IMG/VR virus record: IMGVR_UViG_3300046500_000236
Coordinates: 64,001-89,118 of that record
Origin: a virus
Strand: one strand, 5' to 3'
DNA: 25,118 bases
In this document: piece after piece, positions 1 to 25,115 of the stretch
How the letters are laid out: each line of letters begins with the position of its first letter
How positions within the stretch are numbered: position 1 is the stretch's first letter
Translations under genes and position numbers: made by a program
The notes under the pieces: model-generated
The model's input: only the letters and a program-made list of their open reading frames with translations
What the model was told of the DNA's origin: nothing
Databases searched by the model: none

Positions 1-2295
1 ACTGATCAGCCCACTGGTGGGCTTGCCGTCACTGGTGAGGTACTGAGCGGCCTCAGCATCGCCCAGGGACTGCAGGAACGCGGCAACGAAATCACGGTTG
101 GCGGCGCTGTTGAGGTCGCCGTCGGCAAGCTTGGCCAGCATGGCGGCGTCCAGGCGCTTGGCATCGCTACGGGCCTTCTCCGTCGCGGTCATCGCCAGCT
201 TATCGTCCTGGTTCGCTTCCACTGCGAATTCCACCCGATTGACATCCGACTTGCGCACGCGCACCAGCACCGGCGCTTTCATACGATTGATCTTGGCAAC
301 GTCGACGCCGAAGTACTCCGCGTTTTCCACCAGCCATTCGCGGTACTCGTCCGCGGCGCCGATGCGGTAAGCCTCTTTGATGGCCATCGCCCGGCCGTTG
401 CCCGACTCGACTACGCGGTCAGGGCCCACGATCGGGGCGCCACTGTCGGCGCGCTGGGTGCGCCCCAAGCTGTCCGGATCAAGATTGCGCGCGGTTTTCT
501 GCACCCAGGCCTGCGACGTTGCACGGGCGCGATCGCGCGGCTGAATCTCGGCCGGGTAGTCTGGGTTTACGGTGCCGTCAGCCTCGTGGCTGATCACCAG
601 GTTACGCGCCTCGATCACCTTAAAGCCGGTCAGCACCTTGGTGCCCTTAGCGGTCTTGACGGTGTTGTCGCGTCCATCAGCCTCGATCGTGCCCGTATCC
701 TCATCAGGGCCAGACTCGCCGGTTTGCGGCTCGCTGGTGGCCTCTGGCGCCGGCGCCGCCCCTACAGCCTGGCGCGCCTCATCGATCGCGGCCCGGAAAC
801 CCTGATCGATCTTGGCAGCCATGTCGCTGGCGCTTAGGTCTGGCTCATCAGTCCATTGCAGGTTGCTGCCTGTATCCTTCCAGGACAAAGCCCCTGCACT
901 GTCCTCGACCTTGCGCAGCTGGTAGGTCGCACCATAGAGCGGCAGGTCCAGCAGCACACTCGCGTCAGAGGTATTCCAGCCCAGGGCATCCAGCGCCCGC
1001 TTAATCGCCTTGCCGCGTTCCAGCTCGACCGGCGCAGGCTCAGCGGGCGCAGTAGCCGGCTCTGCCACAGGCTCGGGTGCCGGCGCGGCCTTCTTGGCCT
1101 CCAGCTCGGCCGTCAGCTGCTCAATCTGCTTATCCAGATCGGCCAACTCGGTGGTTTTGGCTGCCTCATCGGCTTTCAGCGCCTCGATCTGGGCGGCGCT
1201 CTCTGCCTTGCCGGCGCTGGCCTGGACGAACTTGGCGCTGTTCTTCTCCACCAATTTCATGATCCGGCGCGCAACCTCGCGCGGGTTCAGGTCCTGGCCA
1301 CGTTCAGGCGCCACCGTAATGGTTACGTCTTTCTTGTTGAGCACCCACTTCCAACTGACCATTTCATCAGTGGCGGTGAGCTTGTTCGGCGTTGTGTCCG
1401 GGTTGTGAAAGAACACACTGACACTCTGGCCATCGTCCATCAGGAACAGCATGGCCAGCTGCGTGGTGCCACGGTTCTTGAATGGCTTGCTGACTTCAAC
1501 GCTGGACGGTTTAACACCCGTGGCGGCCATCTGCATCACGCGCAACAGCTGGTTGGCCTTGCGCTCGAACTGCTGTACCTCGATCACCATGGCATCGAGC
1601 ATGCTGCCGTCGCTCAAGTACTCCTCGATGTCGCCGAGGCTGGCGGCGTCCATCATTAACCCGGATGCGTCATTGCGGCGCAGATCGGCGATCAGGTCGC
1701 CCAGGGTGCTGCCCATCGGCATACGCTGGTCATCCCAGCGCACAAATACGTCGTTCATGCTCACCGCCTTATCGTCTACCAGGTCGCCGGGCTCAAGCGG
1801 GCGGTTCAAATCGCCGTGTCTGAGCCAGTGCTTGAATTGTTTGATGCTGCAGGGCGTGAGGCTGCCCAGCCCGGTCCATCCCTTCTCATAGCTGTTCATG
1901 TAGGCGTTTCGGGCCGACTCCTCATCGCCGAAGCCCAGCAGCACCTTGTGTTCATCAAATGCGCCTTCTCGGTTCTGTTGGTTCACAACGAACACACGCA
2001 GGCTTTCCGGGATCGGCCCCACGAACACGTCCACCGCATCGCCATCAGCGCCCACGGTGCCGTTGATGTAGCCGTAGTGCGCCATGCACGTCACCGACCA
2101 CGCCACACCATCGGACTTGCCGCGGCGTGGCTGAAACATCGGGGTTTCGATGGTGATGGGCATACCGTGCAGGCGTGTCGAGCCCTTGGCGTAGTTGCCA
2201 GCGCGGATTTGCTCGGGGGTGGGGTTGGCGCGGGAGCCGGAGCCATACGCGCCAGAGTGGGCGGCGCCCATAAGATTCGAAAACGTGTCTGCCAT
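1..2295 (-). CDS. Large polyvalent protein, C-terminus beyond window: pyrophosphatase-like, DarA-like and DdrB/ParB-like parts
   Basis: The frame is open from an ATG at 2295 (GAGG about 8 nt upstream) to the window edge, giving 765 residues without a stop. Residues ~40-165 resemble the inorganic-pyrophosphatase-like domain of phage polyvalent proteins (motifs AHYGYINGTVGADGD, DVFVGP, DEHKVLLGF). Residues ~240-357 resemble the DarA-type antirestriction domain (DGQSVSVFFHNPD, then a helix ending KNSAKF). Residues ~358-405 are a Lys/Glu/Ala coiled coil, followed by a Pro/Ala linker. Residues ~550 onward resemble the DdrB-like ParB-superfamily domain (GAPIVGPDRVVESGNGRAMA). Such multidomain proteins are known to be co-injected with phage or plasmid DNA and to protect it; that role here is inferred from family. 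The gene has its own late-type promoter and follows a strong terminator. The true length is unknown. Confidence 0.85.
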   Translation of the reverse strand, partial: MADTFSNLMGAAHSGAYGSGSRANPTPEQIRAGNYAKGSTRLHGMPITIETPMFQPRRGKSDGVAWSVTCMAHYGYINGTVGADGDAVDVFVGPIPESLRVFVVNQQNREGAFDEHKVLLGFGDEESARNAYMNSYEKGWTGLGSLTPCSIKQFKHWLRHGDLNRPLEPGDLVDDKAVSMNDVFVRWDDQRMPMGSTLGDLIADLRRNDASGLMMDAASLGDIEEYLSDGSMLDAMVIEVQQFERKANQLLRVMQMAATGVKPSSVEVSKPFKNRGTTQLAMLFLMDDGQSVSVFFHNPDTTPNKLTATDEMVSWKWVLNKKDVTITVAPERGQDLNPREVARRIMKLVEKNSAKFVQASAGKAESAAQIEALKADEAAKTTELADLDKQIEQLTAELEAKKAAPAPEPVAEPATAPAEPAPVELERGKAIKRALDALGWNTSDASVLLDLPLYGATYQLRKVEDSAGALSWKDTGSNLQWTDEPDLSASDMAAKIDQGFRAAIDEARQAVGAAPAPEATSEPQTGESGPDEDTGTIEADGRDNTVKTAKGTKVLTGFKVIEARNLVISHEADGTVNPDYPAEIQPRDRARATSQAWVQKTARNLDPDSLGRTQRADSGAPIVGPDRVVESGNGRAMAIKEAYRIGAADEYREWLVENAEYFGVDVAKINRMKAPVLVRVRKSDVNRVEFAVEANQDDKLAMTATEKARSDAKRLDAAMLAKLADGDLNSAANRDFVAAFLQSLGDAEAAQYLTSDGKPTSGLIS

Positions 2296-2321
2296 GGCGA
2301 TCGCCTCGGATGAAAGCACAC

Positions 2322-2364
2322 ACGATATAGCGATGAAACGTCCGGTTTTGCTGGGGCTTTGCGC
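2322..2364 (-). promoter_or_regulatory. Putative late promoter P1 (box GCGCAAA, N30, TATCGT)
   Basis: The minus strand carries GCGCAAA (2358-2364), exactly 30 bp, then TATCGT (2322-2327), ending 26 nt before the ATG of the polyvalent protein. AA lies at spacer positions 10-11, as at most sister sites. No TTGACA-like -35 is present. It belongs to the six-site family described in the findings; promoter function is inferred. Confidence 0.55.
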
Positions 2365-2378
2365 CGATCTGCGGGTAC

Positions 2379-2404
2379 AAAAAAGGCGCCTCATTGGGCG
2401 CCTT
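2379..2404 (-). terminator. Rho-independent terminator after the 91-residue gene
   Basis: On the minus strand, GGCGCC - CAATGA - GGCGCC is followed by a run of six T. It begins about 16 nt after the stop codon of the gene at 2421-2696 and separates it from the polyvalent protein gene. Confidence 0.9.
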
Positions 2405-2420
2405 CATTGGCGGAGCTGTT

Positions 2421-2696
2421 TCAGCTCTTGCGAGCGAGACGGGCAGCTTCCCGGCGATCGACTTTGCGTTGACGGTAACGTGTCAGCGCTTCCTCAAGAA
2501 ACGGATCAGTTTCACCCTGAGCAGAACGCATACGGTGCGCCTCCAGCATCAGGTTGAGTAATTCCGATGGCCTTGGCAAACCCAGCTCAGCACTCGCCGA
2601 GCGCAACGTAACGTTGTTGCTGTAGAGCAAGTGCGCATTGAAACGAATGACTTCTTCATCCGCGGGTTCTGGATCGGGCTTGTTCTTGGGGGCCAT
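2421..2696 (-). CDS. Small hydrophilic protein, possibly DNA-binding, of unknown function
   Basis: This is a 91-residue protein with ATG at 2696 and AGGTGA as ribosome-binding site just upstream. The N-terminus is charged and Pro-rich. The middle is helical (residues ~20-55) and the C-terminus is very basic (YRQRKVDRREAARLARKS). I recognise no family. The promoter region carries three 16-bp direct repeats plus an inverted part-copy, the usual arrangement for an autoregulated DNA-binding protein or a partition/stability gene, so a DNA-binding role is a reasonable guess only. It is monocistronic, with its own promoter and a strong terminator. It lacks the late promoter box, so it may be expressed in the plasmid state. 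Confidence 0.7.
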   Translation of the reverse strand: MAPKNKPDPEPADEEVIRFNAHLLYSNNVTLRSASAELGLPRPSELLNLMLEAHRMRSAQGETDPFLEEALTRYRQRKVDRREAARLARKS

Positions 2697-2725
2697 TGCT
2701 CACCTGGAAACTGCTAAGGGACTGA

Positions 2726-2807
2726 GCGCGAACGCTTTGGCGGGATCATAAAGCAAAGGGCGCGTTCGCGCCAATGCGCGTTCACGCCAAAGCGCGTTGG
2801 TGCGTAT
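2726..2807. repeat. Operator-like array: three 16-bp direct repeats and one inverted part-copy
   Basis: Three adjacent 16-bp units begin with GCGCGTT at 2760, 2776 and 2792; the first two differ at two positions and the third has diverged at its 3' half. An inverted part-copy lies at 2726-2742: its core CGCTTTGGCG (2733-2742) is the exact reverse complement of 2785-2794. The direct units overlap the -35 and the inverted copy lies just downstream of the -10, as expected for repression. Confidence 0.65.
2745..2774 (-). promoter_or_regulatory. Sigma70-type promoter for the 91-residue gene
   Basis: On the minus strand, TTGGCG (2769-2774) and TATGAT (2745-2750) are separated by 18 bp, about 50 nt before the start codon. 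The -35 lies inside the 16-bp repeats. Confidence 0.6.
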
Positions 2808-2814
2808 CGCACAC

Positions 2815-2840
2815 AAAAAAGCCCAGCGCATGGCTGGGCT
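2815..2840 (-). terminator. Rho-independent terminator after the small membrane protein gene
   Basis: On the minus strand, AGCCCAGC - CATGC - GCTGGGCT is followed by a run of T. It starts about 19 nt after the stop codon at 2859. Confidence 0.9.
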
Positions 2841-2858
2841 CTGGTGCTGTGAAACGCT

Positions 2859-3092
2859 TTACAGTTTGGCGAGCTGTACCGGCGCCTCCAGTGCGCGAGG
2901 TGCGCACTCAGGCTTCATCGCAGACGGCCACGCCTTGTCCTTTACCATGTTGCAAGTGTACTGCGCATCCGCCACTTGCTGCTCATAGTCCCCACCACCC
3001 ACCAGCCCTACGACCAGGGCAAACACGAGCCCGCCGAGGAAAAGGGTGATCGGGGGAAGGCTTTGCGATTCGGTACGATCTTGAATGTTCAT
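2859..3092 (-). CDS. Small single-pass membrane protein
   Basis: This is a 77-residue protein with ATG at 3092 preceded by a good AAAGGA site. Residues ~14-34 form one hydrophobic helix (ITLFLGGLVFALVVGLVGGG). The short charged N-terminus is predicted cytoplasmic. The remaining ~42 residues hold two cysteines (in TCNM and PECA) that could pair in the periplasm. No lipobox is seen. The family is not recognised; candidates include a host-surface or superinfection factor or a lysis accessory, with nothing to choose between them. The gene is transcribed alone and ends in a strong terminator. It is divergent from the plus-strand gene at 3208, with a 115-bp AT-rich region between them that probably holds both promoters. 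Confidence 0.7.
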   Translation of the reverse strand: MNIQDRTESQSLPPITLFLGGLVFALVVGLVGGGDYEQQVADAQYTCNMVKDKAWPSAMKPECAPRALEAPVQLAKL

Positions 3093-3207
3093 TGTCGCGT
3101 CCTTTTGTTTCTGGCTGATTGGTACTGCGAGACGGACATTAGCATTTGCTTTATTTCATGTACATCCTTCAATAGCGTTTTATTTAATTTAACTACAGGC
3201 GAGTGCG

Positions 3208-3690
3208 ATGAAGATTGTTGTTACGGTGGGCGGATACGGCGGGGCGGGGTCGAAATCGATATCGCTGGCGGCAATGCGCGACGATGCAACGGGAATTCTG
3301 TCCGTCGCCAAAGAGGTGAAATATCGAGAGTCGGCACCGGAGCCCACGCCAGAAAAGCCCGAACGATGGGCGTTCGTGACAAACATGCGGCTGCCGAACT
3401 ACGACTGCCTGTTCACTGAGGAGCACCTGCAGGCCGCAATCCTGGCGTACAGGGAAGGGGATGGCATGGGTACATTTGTCATCGATGACGAGGTGGCCAA
3501 GTACCGCCCGCGAATCGAAGTGGATGGCATCGACACCAATGGCCAGAAGTACCGTCTGGCGTCGGATATCACCAACGGGGAGATGGCGGTACTGGCGCTG
3601 GCGCATTTCCAATCACGCCAGCGCACAGTGGGCGCACTCACCAGTCAGATGGACCGGATGACAAAGATGTACGACATTCTGTCGATTTAG
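3208..3690 (+). CDS. Hypothetical 160-residue protein, the only plus-strand gene
   Basis: ATG at 3208 follows an AGGCGAG site and an AT-rich leader (~3130-3200). The protein is soluble, begins MKIVVTVGGYGGAG, and has no membrane segment or recognised catalytic motif. Its C-terminal part (SRQRTVGALTSQMDRMTKMYDIL) looks helical and amphipathic. The stop codon (3688-3690) overlaps that of the convergent DarA-related gene (3687-3689) by two bases. I prefer this strand over the overlapping reverse frame (3193-3612) because of the start context, the fit to the stop junction and the protein composition, but the preference is moderate. The function is unknown; the position between plasmid-type and virion genes fits an accessory (cargo) gene. 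Confidence 0.6.
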   Translation: MKIVVTVGGYGGAGSKSISLAAMRDDATGILSVAKEVKYRESAPEPTPEKPERWAFVTNMRLPNYDCLFTEEHLQAAILAYREGDGMGTFVIDDEVAKYRPRIEVDGIDTNGQKYRLASDITNGEMAVLALAHFQSRQRTVGALTSQMDRMTKMYDILSI

Positions 3691-4907
3691 TCGTCACCAG
3701 CGGCGTAGGGCTCGCCATAGGGATCGTATCCGGCATCGTCAAGCGCGTTGGTGCCTTTGCCGGTCACCATGTAGAGCCCTGACTCGGTTTCGACCATGCC
3801 CAGCGCCAGCAGCTCGGCTAAAGCGTCCTGGTCTGTGATGCCCTCATCCTCTACAGCCGATTCCTTGGCGATCGCCACCAGCTGCGCCAGGCCCGCGTCA
3901 CTGATCGCAGCAGCGGCGCTGTCCAACATGCCGATGGCCAGCTTGAACGACTCGGCCAGATCCTTCTGCAGCTGCGCCTGCTCCAGGTTGCCCGCCTCGA
4001 CATTGATCGGGTAATTCGTTTCGACCACGTCCAGCGCCATGCGCAGCTGCGCCACAGCGCCCGCCGTCGCCGCACTGTCAAGCATTGCCGGATCTGCCGC
4101 CAGAATCTCACGCGCCGCGACGTAAGCACCCGCCAGCGTCATTGCAGGGGCTTGCGCTTCGGGCTCCTCGACTACTGCTTGAGCGCCAGTGCTATCGAGC
4201 ATGGCCAGAATGGTATCCAGAGCGCTGCGCCCCTTCACGTTCAGGACGTTTGCACCCTGCTCGGTGTAACGGTCGATATAGCCCAGCGCCTCCAGCTCAT
4301 CGCGTCCGGCCTTACTTGGCACATCACCATCCTCTAACGGCCCACGAGCCCCCAGAGCGCGCAGCACGTCCTCGGCAGCATCAGACAGGGAGGGCGGCTC
4401 GGCGCCAGTGCTGTCGGTCATAGCGCCCAGCTTTTGCTGCAGATCCGCCACAGTGGCTTTGCGATCGGCAATCTGATTATCGAGCGCGGTTACGCGTTGT
4501 TGCATCACTTCGGCGATCTTTGGCTTGGGCGTGCTCAGGCCAGGGGGCAGGGCGACTTTGACCCGCGCCTGAGCCTTCTGGAACGCAGCCTGATTCTTGT
4601 CTGCCAGGCTGGCCAGCTCGCCCACGGCCTTGGCCATGTCGTCATGGTTCTTGATGGGCACCACGGACTTGTTGAGCAGCGCCTGGAAGATGTCGCCGGT
4701 TGCGTTCACGCGCAGGGTGATCAGCTGTCCGCTGGCCAGCGTGAGCGAAGCCTCACGATAGGTCATGTTGTTGGTGCGCTTGGGCTTGTCGTTGAACTCG
4801 GTGGCCACCACCGGCTGCCCGCCGCGCACCATCCACTGCTTGACCTTCTTTAGCGCGCCTTCGGCGGCCGATGCGCTGGTGAAGTCCAGCGCGTTCGTAA
4901 CTGGCAT
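3687..4907 (-). CDS. DarA-related antirestriction protein, probable head-internal protein
   Basis: This is a 406-residue protein with ATG at 4907 and a GGGGG ribosome-binding site. Residues ~10-125 match my recollection of DarA-related proteins: a helix with KVKQW, a sheet with the phrase ASGQLITLRVNATGDIF, then VVPIKNHDD and KNQAAFQKA. Residues ~130-165 are a coiled coil. In phage P1, DarA is carried in the head and injected with DNA to protect it from type I restriction. The rest is acidic and Ala-rich and contains MTDS at residue 163 and MLDS at 236, 275 and 327, the motif shared with the prohead protease tail. The gene lies directly below the PAAR gene but has its own late-type promoter. 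Its first domain resembles residues ~240-357 of the polyvalent protein at 1-2295. Confidence 0.75.
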   Translation of the reverse strand: MPVTNALDFTSASAAEGALKKVKQWMVRGGQPVVATEFNDKPKRTNNMTYREASLTLASGQLITLRVNATGDIFQALLNKSVVPIKNHDDMAKAVGELASLADKNQAAFQKAQARVKVALPPGLSTPKPKIAEVMQQRVTALDNQIADRKATVADLQQKLGAMTDSTGAEPPSLSDAAEDVLRALGARGPLEDGDVPSKAGRDELEALGYIDRYTEQGANVLNVKGRSALDTILAMLDSTGAQAVVEEPEAQAPAMTLAGAYVAAREILAADPAMLDSAATAGAVAQLRMALDVVETNYPINVEAGNLEQAQLQKDLAESFKLAIGMLDSAAAAISDAGLAQLVAIAKESAVEDEGITDQDALAELLALGMVETESGLYMVTGKGTNALDDAGYDPYGEPYAAGDD

Positions 4908-4937: not shown

Positions 4938-4980
4938 ATTGTGCGCCGCGGGTGGCGCGCCGTTGGCCAGGGCTTTGCGC
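4938..4980 (-). promoter_or_regulatory. Putative late promoter P2 (box GCGCAAA, N30, CACAAT)
   Basis: The box is at 4974-4980 and begins 2 nt after the PAAR stop codon. CACAAT is at 4938-4943, exactly 30 bp later and 30 nt before the DarA-related ATG. The hexamer is identical to that of P6. No terminator hairpin with a T-run is seen here. Confidence 0.55.
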
Positions 4981-8166: not shown

Positions 8167-11100
8167 TCAATATTGAATGCAAGCCAGCAACGCAATGTTG
8201 TAAGGACGCGTCTCGTTACCACCGGATGCAGCGATGGTCAGCGTGTGCGTATGCGCGGGGGCGGTGTTGGTGGTCAGGCTTTGCAGCCCGTCCTGAATGG
8301 CGTCACCCAAGACGGCGTTGCCCCCGTCTGTTGTGTTGTTGATCGGCAACTTCTCCCGCGGAAGATCAGCGGTATGGTTGTGCGCACCAGCAGCCACGGC
8401 TGTACCGGTGTGGGTGTGGGAGGCGTTCTGATAGGCCTGAGTCGAGCCGAGCGCACGGCCCGAGTCAATGCCGCGTCCGTCGTCCCAGCCCCGCGGGAAA
8501 TAGCCACGCATATCAGGCAGGTTGAACGTTGTAGAACCGTCGCCAGCGCCGTGCGTTGTGCCGATCCTTGCGAAAAGGTTGGCGTAAGTAGTGCGAGACA
8601 CTGCCGCGCCGTTGGCCTTGAGCTTCCCTGCGGGTGGCGTGGCCATCGCGTAGAAACTGACTTCGCCGATACCTTTGTTGTCGATCGCGTCCACATAGTC
8701 GGTGCTGGCGATTTCAAACCATGCCGTCCAGTTCCCGCCCGCTTGAGAACGCCAGAAAATTCGGCTACCTCCCAACTGAGAGGCAATCTGCAGACATCCG
8801 CCCGAGTTGTAGGGAGCGCTGATAACCGACAGGTTGGTAGCGAGCGGTGTGTTCGCGGTAGCGCTGGTGGTCCGGTAAAACCCCCCGCTAGTGGCAGCGT
8901 TGAGATCTGCGCTTAACGGACCTGTCGCTGTGCCTACGCCAGAGTTGGCAAGCGTGGCGGTGACGAAATCCTGAGTGGCCTGGGCAACCCAGGCATCAAA
9001 GCCAGACGCGTCCGCACTGTCGTCGGTGCGCACATAGACCTGGCCGCCCGACAATACAGCCCACTGAGTGCGCTGCCCGGCTGTTTCGACCTGGTAGCCC
9101 AAAGCGTCGTAGTTGGTGCCAGCTACGGCGCCGGTTGCCGTCCAGGAGAACCCAAAAAAGAGGGTGCCGCGCAGCGCGTTCAGGTCCGAAATGACGTTGG
9201 ATTTCGCAGCCAGACCATAAGCGGCCAGGGCGTTCTGGACAAAAGACGTGCTGGCCGCGTCGGTTGTGGCGGTTCCGTCGGCCACGGTAGGGACGGATAC
9301 ACCTTGGTTCAGTTGAACCTTGCCGGTCGTCAAGTTCACTGCAAACGGGCGCAAGCCGTTGTAATTGCCGTATTGATCGCCACTGTTGGTGAACATCAGG
9401 TACAGCGTACCGCCGTCGTTCCGCCAGAAGGCGCCATAGTTGCCGGCGACCATTCGAAAGCTGTTGAAGTTGGTTGTGATCACTTCACCGTCGAAGTGAC
9501 CGCCACCGAACCCAGAGTTTGCATAGCTGATGCCGGTACCGATAACCACCAGCTCAGCAGCTCGACCCTGTTTTAGGGTGGGGCCGCTTCCCGCGGCTGA
9601 GCCAGCGCGGATCGTGACCGTGAAATCGCCGGTGGTCAGGTTGTAGACGTTGTAGATGCCAGAACCGCTTGGAACGATCACGCTGACGTTCGCAGTCAGA
9701 GCGCCGGTCAGGTACAGCACCCCTACGTTTGCCTCAGCCGCCGTCAAGGTCACGTTGGAGCCCGAGAGGGTCTTGCTGGTCACGCCGTTGATCATGGCAC
9801 TGATGCCCAGCGTGGCTTGCGCCTCGGCCTGAGTGGCATCGTCGAGCAGCGTCTGAATGAACGCCGGCATGTTGGCGCGGCTGTAGATTTCCTGGAATGT
9901 GGGCGCACCGGTATTGACCGTGTTGACTCCCGCCCACATTCGCCCGGTGCTGTAGTCCGTATAGATCCCCATGTAGCCGCCGCCAGAGTCACGGCGACCG
10001 AGAACGGTCCAAGTGCCATAGTTGCTGGTATAACCCACAGCAGTCGGTACAGTGACACCCTTGGCCTTGGACGCGGCAATATCGATAAAGCCAGACCAAC
10101 CCTGGGGTTTTACCCAGTCCGCATCTGAGGCAAAGGTCAGTTTCAACCCACCCTCAAGCCCCATGCCATAGTCACCAACCTTGAGCATGCGGCCAAGGGT
10201 GGTATCAAGCGTTCCATCGGTTTTTACCAGTGTGGTGGTGTCCCACGACATCGACCAAACCGAAGCGGCTCCGTTGAAAATCCCGCGTGTCCAGATACGG
10301 CCGGCGTCATATTCCATGTACAGCTGAGTCACGATCGACGCGCTGCCACGTTGCACCAGTAACGTACCGGCTTTTGTAGTCGGGTAATTGAGCGCGAGCG
10401 TGGCTTTGGCGTTTGCGGCCTGGCCGTATAAACCGCTGACTGTGATGTTATTGAGGTCAGTGCCGTCCGGGATCAGGTTCGCACCCACCAACTGCGACAC
10501 GCCAAGGCCAAAATCACCGACCTTTAGCAGACTCCCTGCCGTGGTGTCGTTTACGCCCACGGTCTTGACGAGATTGCCAGTGTGCCAGCTCTCGTCCCAT
10601 GGCCCCCAAACGTTGTTGTAGCACATACGCGTCCAGGTTCTGGACGTGGAGCCTGACCCTTCCGTGAGACCAAAGGTTTGGGTAAGACGAGTAGTGGATG
10701 CGTTGTTATTACGACCTGTGACCGTTAAGACGCCATAAGTCTGACCGCCAGGCTTACCACCGGTTGTTGTGTTACCCACTGCGTACACGCCATTGGGTAA
10801 CGTCGGATCATCAATGTTTGCGATGTAGGACATCGTCAAAGCACCCAGCCCGAAGTCTCCCACCTGCAGCATGCGGCCCAGGGTGCTGTCGGCGTTGTTA
10901 GCGGTCTTGACCAAGTTGCCCGAATGCCAGGACTCAACCCAAGCGGTCCATACGCCGTTCGCACTCGACCGCTGATAGAAGCGCGAGCTGCCCTGCGGCA
11001 TGAATAGCTGCTGGGTGTTGTTGTTGGCGTTGGTCATCGCAATGACCATGCCGGAGATACCAGCGCCCGGAGCGTTAGTGGACGCGCTGCCCACGAAATA

Positions 11101-12771
11101 AAATCCGGTGGCTACCAGCGTGTTGAGGTCGATGCTCAGGTCAGTCAGGTCTTTACGACCTAATCCGAAGTCACCCACACGCAGCACGCTGCCAATGGTG
11201 CTGTCCTGCTCACCGGTGGTGAGGTCCGCGCGTGCTGCGGTGCCAAGTTTTAGAGCGTTCCGAGCCGTGGTGTCCGTGGTTCCGAGCGCGAATTGGTTGC
11301 CGTCATGGAACAGCTCGACGGTGGTCCATACGTTGTTGCTCTTGCGACGGAACCACATACGACTGGACAACTGGCTTGTGACCAACTGCGTGGCGTAAGC
11401 CGACGTATCGCCGGCCATGTGCAGAACTTCACCCGCCTCGGCGTCGACCGGACGCCCCGTTGTAGCCGTGCCCCAGGTGTAGAGACCGCTGACGGTCAGG
11501 GTGTTGATGTTCGCGGCAACCGCAACGCTTAGAGCGCCCAAGCCAAAAGAGCCAGGCACCAGCAGGCGGCCGGCAGCACCATCGTAGAAAGATGCCTGAA
11601 TGCGCGCGATGACCGCCTCATGCACCCGTTGCGGGGGCATCCAGCGGTCCACGATGGTCGAGGCCAGGTCCCGCGCCTGCGCCTGCGTGGCCACCATGGC
11701 CATGTACTCGCCCTTGGTGTAGGTGTCTGCCACCGCGAAGGTGCTCAGCGCGACGATGGTGACCAGCGTGCCTACCGCAATGTTGGCGGCAGCTGCAGTA
11801 GTCAGAGTGACGTTCTGGCCGTCGGTGGCGGTGAAGCTCGATTGCGGCAGCTTCTGCCCACCCGTGAGCGTGCCCACGAATACCATCACACTGCCAGGCG
11901 AGTAGGTGCCGACGTAGTTGGTCTGTTTGGCTGCGGCTGCGGTGTTTGGGTACTCGATGTAGAACTGACCGCCGCCCACGCCGCCGTTGAGCTGGAAGCG
12001 GGTGCCGTCGTACACCATGTCGTAGACAGAATCGACCTTGATGTCGCTCGGGGTTAGCGCGTTACCACCAGCCTTAACCACGGGCTTAGCACCCAGGCCA
12101 TTGATGTTGACGGTCACGGTCGTGGTGTTGGTGTAGGCGGCCACAAAGCGGAATACCTGGCCTTTGCGGTAAGCGTCGAGCACCACCTCGTCAGGCATGG
12201 TCAGCTGGATGGCGTTGGCCGATCCACCCACCACTTCGGCGAATAGGTCCGACTGCGCGTCAGGGAACAGCGAATGCTTGACGTAGTCCGGGTGAGCGTT
12301 GGATGCGCCCTCGTGCGCAGCAAGCGCGGCCAGTGCTACCGACTCAGCCGGGTCGACACTGATCGCGATGTTCACGCTCGGAACGGAAGACAGCGCCAGG
12401 TCCACAAAGTGAACTGCGGTCACTCCATCGGTTTTGGTGAATGCCGACTGACCGGCCGCGGTCGACCAGATGAATACCAGGATGTTGTTCGACCAAAAGC
12501 CGATTTCAGTAATGGGCTTTTCGCCGCCGATGTTCTCGCGCCAGGCGGACAGCATGCGCAGCTGGCGGGGATTGGGGCGGGTGCCGCCTGCCAGAGTCAC
12601 CTTGGCGCTCACAGGAGTTTTGAGCGCCACCTCTGTGCCGATCGGATCGTATTTGCCCTGCCCGAACGAGATATGGGTCAGGTTCAGCGAAACGCCCTGA
12701 TTGGACGCCGCCAAAGCTGCCTGCTGGCCCGCATTCGTCAGCTTGGGATTGATAATTAACGGATCAGCCAT
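8167..12771 (-). CDS. Tail fibre with tail-collar N-terminus and repeated knob-type domains
   Basis: This is a 1534-residue protein. Residues ~1-150 match the tail-collar fibre N-terminus that attaches to the baseplate. Residues ~400-960 hold repeats of ~105-130 residues. Each begins with a (L)xVGDFGLG phrase at ~403, 530, 636, 749 and 864 and most contain a pyocin-knob-like part (FYxVG, then RxWxRxxxNNVWxxW and SWHxGNL). Further knob-like parts occur near residues 1200-1255 and 1290-1355. The end (~1365-1534) is a phage tail collar/gp12-like tip (GEVSFYAMATPPAGKLKANG, FNLPDMRGYFPRG) with SHTHTG, GAHNHT and APAHTHT, histidine pairs like those that bind iron in T4-type fibre tips. It should bind the host surface. 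ATG at 12771 has GGGGG upstream and its own late-type promoter. Confidence 0.9.
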   Translation of the reverse strand: MADPLIINPKLTNAGQQAALAASNQGVSLNLTHISFGQGKYDPIGTEVALKTPVSAKVTLAGGTRPNPRQLRMLSAWRENIGGEKPITEIGFWSNNILVFIWSTAAGQSAFTKTDGVTAVHFVDLALSSVPSVNIAISVDPAESVALAALAAHEGASNAHPDYVKHSLFPDAQSDLFAEVVGGSANAIQLTMPDEVVLDAYRKGQVFRFVAAYTNTTTVTVNINGLGAKPVVKAGGNALTPSDIKVDSVYDMVYDGTRFQLNGGVGGGQFYIEYPNTAAAAKQTNYVGTYSPGSVMVFVGTLTGGQKLPQSSFTATDGQNVTLTTAAAANIAVGTLVTIVALSTFAVADTYTKGEYMAMVATQAQARDLASTIVDRWMPPQRVHEAVIARIQASFYDGAAGRLLVPGSFGLGALSVAVAANINTLTVSGLYTWGTATTGRPVDAEAGEVLHMAGDTSAYATQLVTSQLSSRMWFRRKSNNVWTTVELFHDGNQFALGTTDTTARNALKLGTAARADLTTGEQDSTIGSVLRVGDFGLGRKDLTDLSIDLNTLVATGFYFVGSASTNAPGAGISGMVIAMTNANNNTQQLFMPQGSSRFYQRSSANGVWTAWVESWHSGNLVKTANNADSTLGRMLQVGDFGLGALTMSYIANIDDPTLPNGVYAVGNTTTGGKPGGQTYGVLTVTGRNNNASTTRLTQTFGLTEGSGSTSRTWTRMCYNNVWGPWDESWHTGNLVKTVGVNDTTAGSLLKVGDFGLGVSQLVGANLIPDGTDLNNITVSGLYGQAANAKATLALNYPTTKAGTLLVQRGSASIVTQLYMEYDAGRIWTRGIFNGAASVWSMSWDTTTLVKTDGTLDTTLGRMLKVGDYGMGLEGGLKLTFASDADWVKPQGWSGFIDIAASKAKGVTVPTAVGYTSNYGTWTVLGRRDSGGGYMGIYTDYSTGRMWAGVNTVNTGAPTFQEIYSRANMPAFIQTLLDDATQAEAQATLGISAMINGVTSKTLSGSNVTLTAAEANVGVLYLTGALTANVSVIVPSGSGIYNVYNLTTGDFTVTIRAGSAAGSGPTLKQGRAAELVVIGTGISYANSGFGGGHFDGEVITTNFNSFRMVAGNYGAFWRNDGGTLYLMFTNSGDQYGNYNGLRPFAVNLTTGKVQLNQGVSVPTVADGTATTDAASTSFVQNALAAYGLAAKSNVISDLNALRGTLFFGFSWTATGAVAGTNYDALGYQVETAGQRTQWAVLSGGQVYVRTDDSADASGFDAWVAQATQDFVTATLANSGVGTATGPLSADLNAATSGGFYRTTSATANTPLATNLSVISAPYNSGGCLQIASQLGGSRIFWRSQAGGNWTAWFEIASTDYVDAIDNKGIGEVSFYAMATPPAGKLKANGAAVSRTTYANLFARIGTTHGAGDGSTTFNLPDMRGYFPRGWDDGRGIDSGRALGSTQAYQNASHTHTGTAVAAGAHNHTADLPREKLPINNTTDGGNAVLGDAIQDGLQSLTTNTAPAHTHTLTIAASGGNETRPYNIALLACIQY

Positions 12772-18225: not shown

Positions 18226-19140
18226 TCAGGCGAACCCTACGACTTTCTGCACCATTTCGAGACCCTTGCGCAGCAAGGTCTTTTCTTCGGCCTCCTTGGG
18301 ATCATCCGGCAGCGGCTCAAGGCCTGGCAGCGGCACTGTCATGTAGTGTTGGGCGCTGTCGAGCATTTCCGATGCCCTGTCGCGCGAATAGAACGTGCCG
18401 CGCTCCAGCAGCGTCGGCGCGGTGCTGTCGAGCATGGCGCCACCGGGCTGGCCCTTCTTGAGCGCCTTGATACTCTCCTCGAGCTTGGCGCAGCGCGTCA
18501 CCAGATCGTCGTTGACCTGGCATTGGTGCAGGTAGGCGGTGCTCATGCCCTCGGCCATTTCCTCATTGGCCGCGAGGATGCTCTCCACGCTATCCATCAT
18601 CGCGGCATAGTCCTCGGTAAAGCTGCCCTGCAGCGCGCCAGCGTCGGTACTGTCCAGCATGGCGTCGTAGCCACGGTTCGTGTCGTAGTTGGGGCTGCGC
18701 ACGAAATCCATGCCGAAGTAGTTCTTTGGCGTGCGCTTGCCGTTGATGGACGGCGCATAGAAAACCGAACTGAAACCCCATTGCTTGTTTTGGTACAGGC
18801 GCCGAGCGATGCGCCCGGACGATGTCGGCATGAACTCCTGCTGATGCTCAATGGTGCCGTCTGGGTAGGCTTTGATCATCACCGTCTTCACCGTAGGCTC
18901 AAACGTGATCGTCTTGCCCGATACGGGGTCAATGGTGGCCTCTGGCAGGTCCAGACCGTACTTTTCACGGAACCCGTGACCCATGTACCCGTAGATATCG
19001 CCCTTGCGCACCGACTCCTGCACGATCGGGCCATTGAGCAGCAGCACCAGCATGGGGATGTCGATATCGCGGTCTACGCCGGTGAAGTCGCGCCCCCGGT
19101 CCTTTACGTTGTAGCGGATTACCTCGGTACGGTTATTCAT
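18226..19140 (-). CDS. Prohead protease with scaffold tail (gp21-like)
   Basis: This is a 304-residue protein. The N-terminal ~150 residues fit the gp21/assemblin-type serine protease: a His in GYMGHGF (His55), the pattern G..a..l......G.SS at residues 109-125 with Ser124 or Ser125 as nucleophile, and DFVRSPN (Asp145), the family's closing motif. The rest is a helical scaffold-type tail rich in Glu, Met and Lys. MLDS or MMDS occurs at residues 161, 181, 236 and 259, just after the protease domain and along the tail, so these are plausible self-cleavage sites that release the scaffold. The gene lies directly after the portal, whose TGA overlaps its ATG (TGATG). The major capsid gene is not next to it. 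Confidence 0.8.
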   Translation of the reverse strand: MNNRTEVIRYNVKDRGRDFTGVDRDIDIPMLVLLLNGPIVQESVRKGDIYGYMGHGFREKYGLDLPEATIDPVSGKTITFEPTVKTVMIKAYPDGTIEHQQEFMPTSSGRIARRLYQNKQWGFSSVFYAPSINGKRTPKNYFGMDFVRSPNYDTNRGYDAMLDSTDAGALQGSFTEDYAAMMDSVESILAANEEMAEGMSTAYLHQCQVNDDLVTRCAKLEESIKALKKGQPGGAMLDSTAPTLLERGTFYSRDRASEMLDSAQHYMTVPLPGLEPLPDDPKEAEEKTLLRKGLEMVQKVVGFA

Positions 19141-24710: not shown

Positions 24711-25115
24711 TCAGTCGTCGATGTCGTCGTCATCCGGATCGTACGGCGCAGGGGTCAGATCGATGCCCAGCGGGAACTTGCCAAAGAGCGACTGCGCAGC
24801 GATCAGCGCGATACGCATACCCTTGGCCATGTCCTCGTTTAATTCGAGCTCGGTGGGCTCGCTGTCACCGTTGTGGAACTTAACCGCTACACCAGGCGCC
24901 ACCGCGTTGTGCAGGGTGGCCAGCTGATCCCTACGCGACGAATACCAACGCTCCAGGAAGCGCAGGCCTTCGACTGAGTCAGGCAGGTGCACGACGCGGC
25001 TCACCAGGTTCTCCAGCTCGTGCTTTAGGCGCCCGTGCTCGTGGATCGAATCCTCGCCGGCGAATGGGCCATCGATCAGGCTCCAGGCCGACGAAACCAC
25101 CTGGTGCTGCTCCAT
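24711..25115 (-). CDS. Hypothetical protein with acidic C-terminal tail
   Basis: A 134-residue reading frame with ATG at 25115; the window ends 3 nt later, so a start further upstream cannot be excluded. The N-terminal part is helical, with RFLERWYSSRRDQLATLHNA. The end is very acidic (DPDDDDIDD). I recognise no family. It lies just upstream of the origin and carries its own terminator. An acidic tail can mark a DNA-mimic or a protein that docks on single-stranded-DNA-binding or replication proteins, but nothing else supports that here. Confidence 0.65.
   Translation of the reverse strand: MEQHQVVSSAWSLIDGPFAGEDSIHEHGRLKHELENLVSRVVHLPDSVEGLRFLERWYSSRRDQLATLHNAVAPGVAVKFHNGDSEPTELELNEDMAKGMRIALIAAQSLFGKFPLGIDLTPAPYDPDDDDIDD

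What the first reader, a model, noticed from the sequence alone, without database searches (positions are those of the whole stretch)
1..4907. Two proteins carry versions of the same DarA-like domain
Residues ~10-125 of the DarA-related protein and ~240-357 of the polyvalent protein align by eye: a helix, a V-rich strand, (L)xxGQxxxxxxxNxTGD or DGQSVSVFFHNPD, and a closing helix with KNxAxFxxA. Both genes have the late-type promoter. This suggests a duplicated module, free in one case and fused to a pyrophosphatase-like and a ParB-like domain in the other. The pyrophosphatase-like domain in an injected protein is itself of interest.
Basis: partly seen in the sequence, partly recalled or inferred. 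Interest (0 to 1): 0.5.

Follow-up and report, generated by a model that had tools for sequence, protein, structure and literature searches.

The report
Two paired, protease-cut phage head proteins
Two proteins of a bacterial virus do share one domain, but it is the old, known partner pair (Hdf and DarA) that phage P1 packs inside its head; what looks new is a map of likely cut sites, where the virus's own head protease may clip these proteins apart before they are injected into the host.

Summary
In detail: both proteins carry Pfam DarA_N (56.6 and 131.6 bits, cut-off 27), and both predicted folds match solved P1 DarA. It is not a fresh duplication. The 406-aa protein (A) is Hdf-type, the polyvalent protein (B) DarA-type: a tree puts A with P1 Hdf and B with P1 DarA (100/98), and 24 of 27 related viral records carry two copies. 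That pair, and InPase in phage polyvalent proteins, are published. The phage looks like a P1-type phage-plasmid, probably of Pseudomonas.

Beyond the finding: P1's capsid protein is cut at MLE|S (published). At that aligned place 21 of 21 capsid proteins have [D/E]|S. In this genome MLDS occurs 8 times, all in A, capsid protein, protease and one polyvalent protein. Like sites lie just before DarA_N in B (28 of 28 rows), where P1 DarA's ordered structure begins. I infer that the head protease cuts the pyrophosphatase-like domain off DarA_N and trims A to Hdf size. No cut was shown experimentally.

The parts
3687..4907 (-). Protein A, Hdf-type, 406 aa
   Evidence: Pfam DarA_N 56.6 bits; PHROG 1620 'Hdf-like' 1.6e-32; profile matches P1 Hdf 9ukm_H E 1.2e-12; tree
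4590..4862 (-). DarA_N domain of A (aa 16-106)
4425..4637 (-). Helical part of the shared module in A (predicted helices aa 91-118 and 131-161)
   Evidence: AlphaFold2 model, mean pLDDT 74.2
4410..4421 (-). MTD|S, predicted protease site right after the Hdf-size core of A (aa 163-166)
   Evidence: [MI][TV]DS there in 17 of 20 A proteins that have an extension (alignment, counted by eye)
4191..4202 (-). MLD|S site in A (aa 236-239)
4074..4085 (-). MLD|S site in A (aa 275-278)
3918..3929 (-). MLD|S site in A (aa 327-330)
1..2295 (-). Protein B, DarA-type polyvalent protein from its likely start M34; continues 824 bases left of the window to G000:63176
   Evidence: start inferred
1822..2214 (-). 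InPase domain of B (aa 61-191 of the 1072-aa frame)
   Evidence: PF18823 161.8 bits; DGD..D and FDEHK motifs
1645..1659 (-). Predicted protease site 1 of B, LMMD|A (D249|A250)
   Evidence: [DE]|[SA] in 26 of 28 rows
1591..1605 (-). Predicted protease site 2 of B, SMLD|A (D267|A268)
   Evidence: [DE]|[SA] in 28 of 28 rows incl. P1 DarA E69|A70
1237..1602 (-). DarA_N domain of B (aa 265-386)
   Evidence: 131.6 bits; model matches P1 DarA, VIA Z 15.3
1087..1284 (-). Long helix of the shared module in B (aa 371-436)
   Evidence: model H126-191
250..648 (-). ddrB-ParB domain of B (aa 583-715)
   Evidence: 119.2 bits; B aa 574-975 match P1 DdrB at 42.5%
18226..19140 (-). Head maturation protease, homologue of P1 Pro
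   Evidence: tblastn to P1 Pro and to Xanthomonas phage Rb1 'prohead core protein protease'; H55 and S124 invariant in 20 of 20
18355..18660 (-). Stretch with four M[LM]D|S sites in the C-terminal part of the protease (aa 161-164, 181-184, 236-239, 259-262), probable self-cleavage sites
4973..4979 (-). Late-type promoter box CGCAAAG upstream of A
2357..2363 (-). Late-type promoter box CGCAAAG upstream of B's M34

Best explanation
A and B are the Hdf-type and DarA-type members of an ancient pair of internal head proteins in a P1-type phage-plasmid. Shown here: homology of the shared module (DarA_N plus trailing helix) between A and B and to solved P1 DarA; orthology of A to Hdf and of B to DarA; fusion in B of the DarA module to a P1 DdrB-like ParB region, with an InPase domain in front; and a conserved motif, (hydrophobic)(hydrophobic)[D/E]|[S/A], concentrated in capsid protein, protease and Dar-type proteins and aligned with P1's sequenced capsid cut site. 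Inferred: the Pro-type head protease cuts at these sites inside the prohead. It would separate a ~24-kDa InPase fragment from an ~86-kDa DarA_N-helix-ParB fragment of B and trim A to a ~17.7-kDa Hdf-size core plus small pieces. The two DarA_N-helix cores would then sit paired on the inner capsid face, as DarA-Hdf pairs do in P1, and go into the host with the DNA. What InPase and ParB do in the host is not shown.
For: Pfam, PHROG and PDB-sequence matches; profile-profile E 2.5e-9; fold matches of both models to P1 DarA; tree split 100/98; two DarA_N copies in 24 of 27 records. Cut sites: P1 gp23 mature N-terminus SVAAEM by Edman (PMC9024508, section read) sits in KAMLE|SVAAEM; 21 of 21 aligned capsid proteins have [DE]|S there. 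Exact MLDS: 25 in the head set of four genomes (8, 8, 5, 4), 0 in other kept ORFs, while the 23 other orders of the four letters give 8 in all in the head set. B site 2 in 28 of 28 rows, site 1 in 26 of 28. P1 DarA density starts at residue 70 and a ~9-kDa piece is reported cut off (PMC12810830, section read); the predicted cut E69|A70 gives 7.9 kDa, and the B model aligns to DarA from residue 70. P1 Hdf, reported unprocessed, has no such motif.
Against: No cut, packaging or pairing was shown in this phage. B's sites are MMDA and MLDA, not the MLDS found in the protease and capsid protein; B and the LPD1 protein hold no exact MLDS in any of the genomes where they were scanned, and A of G014 holds none. 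In ABMM1 site 1 is lost, and in L037 it reads D|P. Edman sequencing of mature P1 DarA gave no clear signal. In P1 the looser motif also occurs 4 times outside the head/Dar set, against 8 inside, 5 of them in Pro; a P1 DdrB match at 439-442 does not explain its reported 76-kDa product. The head set was chosen partly after seeing the motif. A and B helix charges do not mirror P1's charge complementarity.
Confidence: 0.75

Rival explanations
1. Recent duplication of one DarA module inside this phage, one copy free and one fused.
For: Both genes lie within 5 kb and share the domain.
Against: The tree puts A with P1 Hdf and B with P1 DarA (100/98); pairwise A-B similarity is near noise (E 0.34), while each matches its own P1 partner far better.
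Confidence: 0.02
2. The MLD[S/A] motif is a capsid-targeting or binding motif, not a cleavage site; the proteins enter the head whole.
For: It occurs in several proteins expected to enter the head, and one protein can hold three or four copies.
Against: The aligned P1 capsid site is a sequenced cut. P1 DarB, which carries a mapped N-terminal targeting signal, has no match to the loose P1 form of the motif.
Confidence: 0.12
3. The protease cuts capsid protein, itself and A, but the MLDA/MMDA sites of B are not used, so InPase stays on the DarA_N-ParB chain and is injected with it.
For: The residue after the cut is Ala, not Ser, at site 2 in 25 of 26 rows without P1 and ABMM1, and B has no exact MLDS.
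Against: P1 DarA itself has Ala at the predicted cut and is reported processed at about that place; the two Asp are invariant in 26 of 26 rows.
Confidence: 0.2
4. The shared module is first of all a DNA-binding, counter-restriction domain acting in the host, and its capsid contact is secondary.
For: P1 DarA has been tied to anti-restriction; in P1 the N-terminal domains face DNA.
Against: Loss of DarA or Hdf in P1 changes head size and excludes the other Dar proteins, which points to an assembly role. Not exclusive of the main reading.
Confidence: 0.3

Closest known systems
Phage P1 DarA-Hdf pair (PDB 9ukm, 9vz0)
   Same: Both members, DarA_N plus helix, and homologous head protease and capsid protein
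   Different: Here the DarA-type protein carries InPase in front and a DdrB-like ParB region behind in one chain, and the Hdf-type protein has a ~240-aa C-terminal extension with predicted cut sites
Phage polyvalent proteins with InPase, DarA-N and DdrB-ParB domains (Iyer et al. 2017, PMC5512222)
   Same: All three domains of B are named there; InPase predicted packaged and injected
   Different: That paper points to a built-in metallopeptidase for processing; Pfam finds no metallopeptidase in B, and head-protease sites are proposed instead
Xanthomonas phage Rb1 'internal head protein' and DarA_N protein (PQ569993)
   Same: InPase-DarA_N order in one protein, a separate short DarA_N protein, homologous capsid and protease
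   Different: Its Hdf-type protein is only 160 aa; part of A's C-terminal extension is found instead in its DarA-type protein (aa 642-693)
Head-protease processing of internal proteins in T4 and SPN3US
   Same: One protease cuts many head proteins during assembly (SPN3US: abstract read; T4: recalled)
   Different: Other phage lineages; I did not compare motifs

Membership tests
DarA_N (PF18788) | Score over the curated cut-off | tested here: met
   A 56.6, B 131.6 bits, cut-off 27
DarA_N (PF18788) | Same fold as the solved P1 DarA N-terminal region | tested here: met
   A: Foldseek E 2.9e-6, VIA Z 10.7, rmsd 2.4 over 111; B: E 1.5e-10, Z 15.3, rmsd 5.5 over 168
DarA_N (PF18788) | Conserved Asp and Asn-x-basic (NX+) named by Iyer et al. 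| tested here: inconclusive
   Invariant D72 and N79 in A, D98 and N108-K109 in B; in window A the residue two after N79 is Ser, and I did not check which Asp the paper means
Hdf (P1) | Orthology to P1 Hdf | tested here: met
Hdf (P1) | DarA_N is the sole domain, small protein (203 aa) | tested here: not met
   A is 406 aa with an extension; only the predicted cut core (165 aa) would fit. So A is filed as Hdf-type, not as an Hdf
DarA (P1) | Orthology of the DarA_N-helix region | tested here: met
   9ukm_I E 1.9e-28; tree
DarA (P1) | Penton-binding domain after the helix | not tested
   Only the segment up to the helix was compared with P1 DarA
DarA (P1) | N-terminal piece removed by the head protease | not testable with these tools
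   Site conserved in 28 of 28 rows, cleavage itself not seen
Type I inorganic pyrophosphatase, phage InPase branch (PF18823) | Family score and acidic active-site motif | tested here: met
   161.8 bits; GY..DGD..D and FDEHK in 24 of 26 relatives and in Rb1, absent in L034, L036 and ABMM1. PF00719 itself is below its cut-off
Type I inorganic pyrophosphatase, phage InPase branch (PF18823) | Hydrolyses pyrophosphate | not testable with these tools
   needs enzyme assay
P1 Pro-type prohead protease | Sequence homology and conserved His and Ser | tested here: met
   tblastn E 2e-13 to P1 Pro; H55 and S124 invariant in 20 of 20
P1 Pro-type prohead protease | Cuts the capsid protein | not testable with these tools
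   inferred from the conserved D|S site

The most novel reading that the evidence does not exclude
In P1-type phages the head maturation protease reads one short signal, (hydrophobic)2-[D/E]|[S/A], in capsid protein, itself and the injected Dar proteins. The polyvalent proteins are therefore polyproteins: DarA_N-helix cores are the capsid-docked platform, and enzymes (InPase, the C-terminal pieces of A) are cassettes cut free in the head and swapped between the two partners during evolution. The same rule predicts the cut of P1 DarA at E69|A70, which N-terminal sequencing had failed to give.
Probability: 0.6. Interest if true: 0.6.

Novelty: new variant of a known kind. Interest (0 to 1): 0.4.

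Why it matters
The domain sharing is known biology. What could matter is the cut-site rule: it would say where P1 DarA is processed (Edman sequencing had failed), how multi-enzyme phage proteins without a peptidase of their own come apart, and which pieces are really injected. It is testable on P1 itself with standard virion proteomics.

Tried and rejected
Recent duplication: rejected by the tree, which has long branches (P1_Hdf 2.36), so depth inside each half is unsure. Different folds: rejected. Electrostatic pairing of A and B helices as in P1: net charges computed show no such complementarity, so pairing rests on homology only. A shared C-terminal domain in A and B: hhalign 5% probability, not supported; a resemblance of A's C-terminal part to P1 DarA 567-627 is weak (domain E 0.0066 against two sequences). 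P1 motif scan: 8 in the head/Dar set against 4 elsewhere for [ML][LIMF]ES, modest. Late-promoter pattern with a -10 element: strict form 0 hits, loose form 5 hits, one of them before B. PADLOC: no match for A or B. Host search in genome contigs with A: none confirmed. Near DNA search of phages: none. VIA matches to actin-capping proteins (Z 6-8) are below the level that means anything alone.

Rows dropped before counts: the MCP alignment used 17 of 18 records with a match (fragment L073 left out). The B alignment left out L032 (no DGQ anchor) and L038 (fragment), and L026 was dropped as a copy of L024. A rows: 22 loci plus the window, P1 and Rb1. Whole-genome motif counts used 4 records (the window's and 3 of 27 relatives). 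Searches for a published cleavage rule or its link to polyvalent proteins found no paper giving it (open-licence PMC only, listings seen).
Full report
What is there. The window is bases 64001-89118 of an 89,118-base virus record with a 127-base direct terminal repeat, a RepA replication initiator (PF10134, E 1e-61) and a ParA-like partition protein. The nearest named relatives of B lie on Pseudomonas plasmids: P. putida NZ_AP015032, P. fluorescens CP048608 and P. atacamensis NZ_CP070504. The first two have the same lengths as records G001 and G016. I read it as a P1-type phage-plasmid, probably of Pseudomonas. Protein A (3687-4907, minus) and protein B (1-2394, minus, continuing to G000:63176; full frame 1072 aa) are the two proteins of the finding.

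Both carry DarA_N over the Pfam cut-off. Pairwise BLASTP is at noise level (E 0.34). Profile comparison is clear (96.2%, E 2.5e-9). Both AlphaFold2 models (mean pLDDT 74.2 and 73.3) show a helix, a sheet and closing helices, and both find P1 DarA as their only Foldseek matches with E <= 0.001 (A 2.9e-6, B 1.5e-10). VIA-align 2 gives Z 11.7 (rmsd 10.0, 152 residues) and 10.7 (rmsd 2.4, 111 residues) for A, and 15.3 (rmsd 5.5, 168 residues) for B, against 7.2 and 7.6 for the best other chains.

It is the Hdf/DarA pair. A's profile finds P1 Hdf (9ukm_H, E 1.2e-12) before DarA (E 0.0095); B's finds P1 DarA (9ukm_I, E 1.9e-28). In a tree of 53 rows, 25 A/Hdf rows and 28 B/DarA rows fall on two sides of one branch with support 100/98. 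All 27 related viral records have DarA_N over cut-off; 24 have two, one strong and one weak; G022, G026 and G027 have one and may be fragments. B aa 574-975 match P1 DdrB at 42.5%, so B is a DarA-DdrB fusion with InPase in front; in P1 darA and ddrB are separate genes.

Known background. Iyer et al. state that DarA-N is the N-terminal domain of P1 DarA and the sole domain of Hdf, and discuss InPase as a packaged phage domain (PMC5512222, passages read). Zheng et al. show 55 DarA-Hdf pairs on the inner capsid face, joined through helical domains (PMC12810830; abstract and four sections read, plus passages).

A cut-site rule. P1 capsid protein gp23 matures to SVAAEM (Edman; PMC9024508, section read). 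In the P1 sequence the context is KAMLE|SVAAEM. The G000 capsid protein (51957-53639, 38% identical to Rb1's) and 20 others all have [DE]|S at that aligned place, 21 of 21. In this genome exact MLDS occurs 8 times in six frames: three times in A, once in the capsid protein, three times in the protease and once in an LPD3-methyltransferase polyvalent protein. In four whole genomes the counts in the head set are 8, 8, 5 and 4, with none in other kept ORFs (two in frames not kept); the 23 other letter orders sum to 8 in the head set. The head set was chosen partly after the motif was seen, and the four genomes are related, so I give no p-value. The protease is the P1 Pro homologue, with H55 and S124 invariant in 20 of 20 rows.

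Sites in A and B. In B two sites precede DarA_N. Site 2 has [DE]|[SA] in 28 of 28 rows, including P1 DarA LLE|A (69|70) and ABMM1 LYD|S; site 1 in 26 of 28. Both Asp are invariant in the 26 rows without P1 and ABMM1, in a stretch (aa 200-300) with only five invariant columns. They lie in the first 22 residues of the model, of which 1-20 have pLDDT under 50. P1 DarA is ordered from residue 70 and loses a ~9-kDa piece; the prediction gives 7.9 kDa. In A, [MI][TV]DS follows the Hdf-size core in 17 of 20 proteins with an extension (counted by eye); the exceptions are L015, L024 and L030. Short Hdf-type proteins (Rb1, L034, L036, L103) lack the extension. Part of A's extension is found in Rb1 in the DarA-type protein instead (aa 642-693), lying between TMDS and VMDS, which suggests that cassettes moved between the partners.

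InPase. The acidic motifs are kept in 24 of 26 relatives examined and in Rb1; L034, L036 and ABMM1 lack them. L034 and L036 still keep both cut sites, so the sites do not depend on InPase.

Mechanism. Shown: homology, orthology, architecture and motif conservation. Inferred: cleavage in the prohead, pairing of the two cores on the capsid wall, release of InPase, injection. Unknown: the host-side effect. Restriction protection was not testable here.

Verdict. The finding as written is correct but largely known. The added value is the cut-site rule and the polyprotein reading, which are testable on P1.

Noticed in passing
G000:53748-56960 (outside the window): Polyvalent protein with LPD3 and a C-terminal methyltransferase-like domain (NPPF motif, recalled as typical of N6-adenine methyltransferases), one MLDS and one MLDA site.
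   Followed up: partly
window 4979, 2363, 12841, 15249, 22822 and elsewhere, minus strand: Box CGCAAA[CG]C before several late genes, sometimes followed by a short hairpin; candidate late promoter element of this phage group.
   Followed up: partly
P1 NC_005856 19014-20033: RefSeq calls P1 Pro a 'tail fiber protein', while its His and Ser are invariant across 20 head-protease homologues; PHROG 1801 carries the same label.
   Followed up: partly
window 3208-3690 (+): 160-aa gene on the opposite strand between A and B, PHROG 4179 of unknown function.
   Followed up: no
window 24711-25115 (-): 134-aa protein with a weak match to Mu Gam-like end-protection families (phrog_6755, E 1.1e-6), in a plasmid-type phage.
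   Followed up: no
window 8167-12771 (-): 1534-aa tail-fibre-like protein with repeated GDFGLG-type units.
   Followed up: no
L007 (Rb1) 36802-40467, internal head protein aa 642-693: Piece of A's C-terminal extension sits in the DarA-type protein of Rb1, between TMDS and VMDS.
   Followed up: yes
L010 (ABMM1) 30776-32728: DarA-type protein whose N-terminal ~170 aa look like an InPase without its acidic motif; perhaps a decayed copy (by eye).
   Followed up: no
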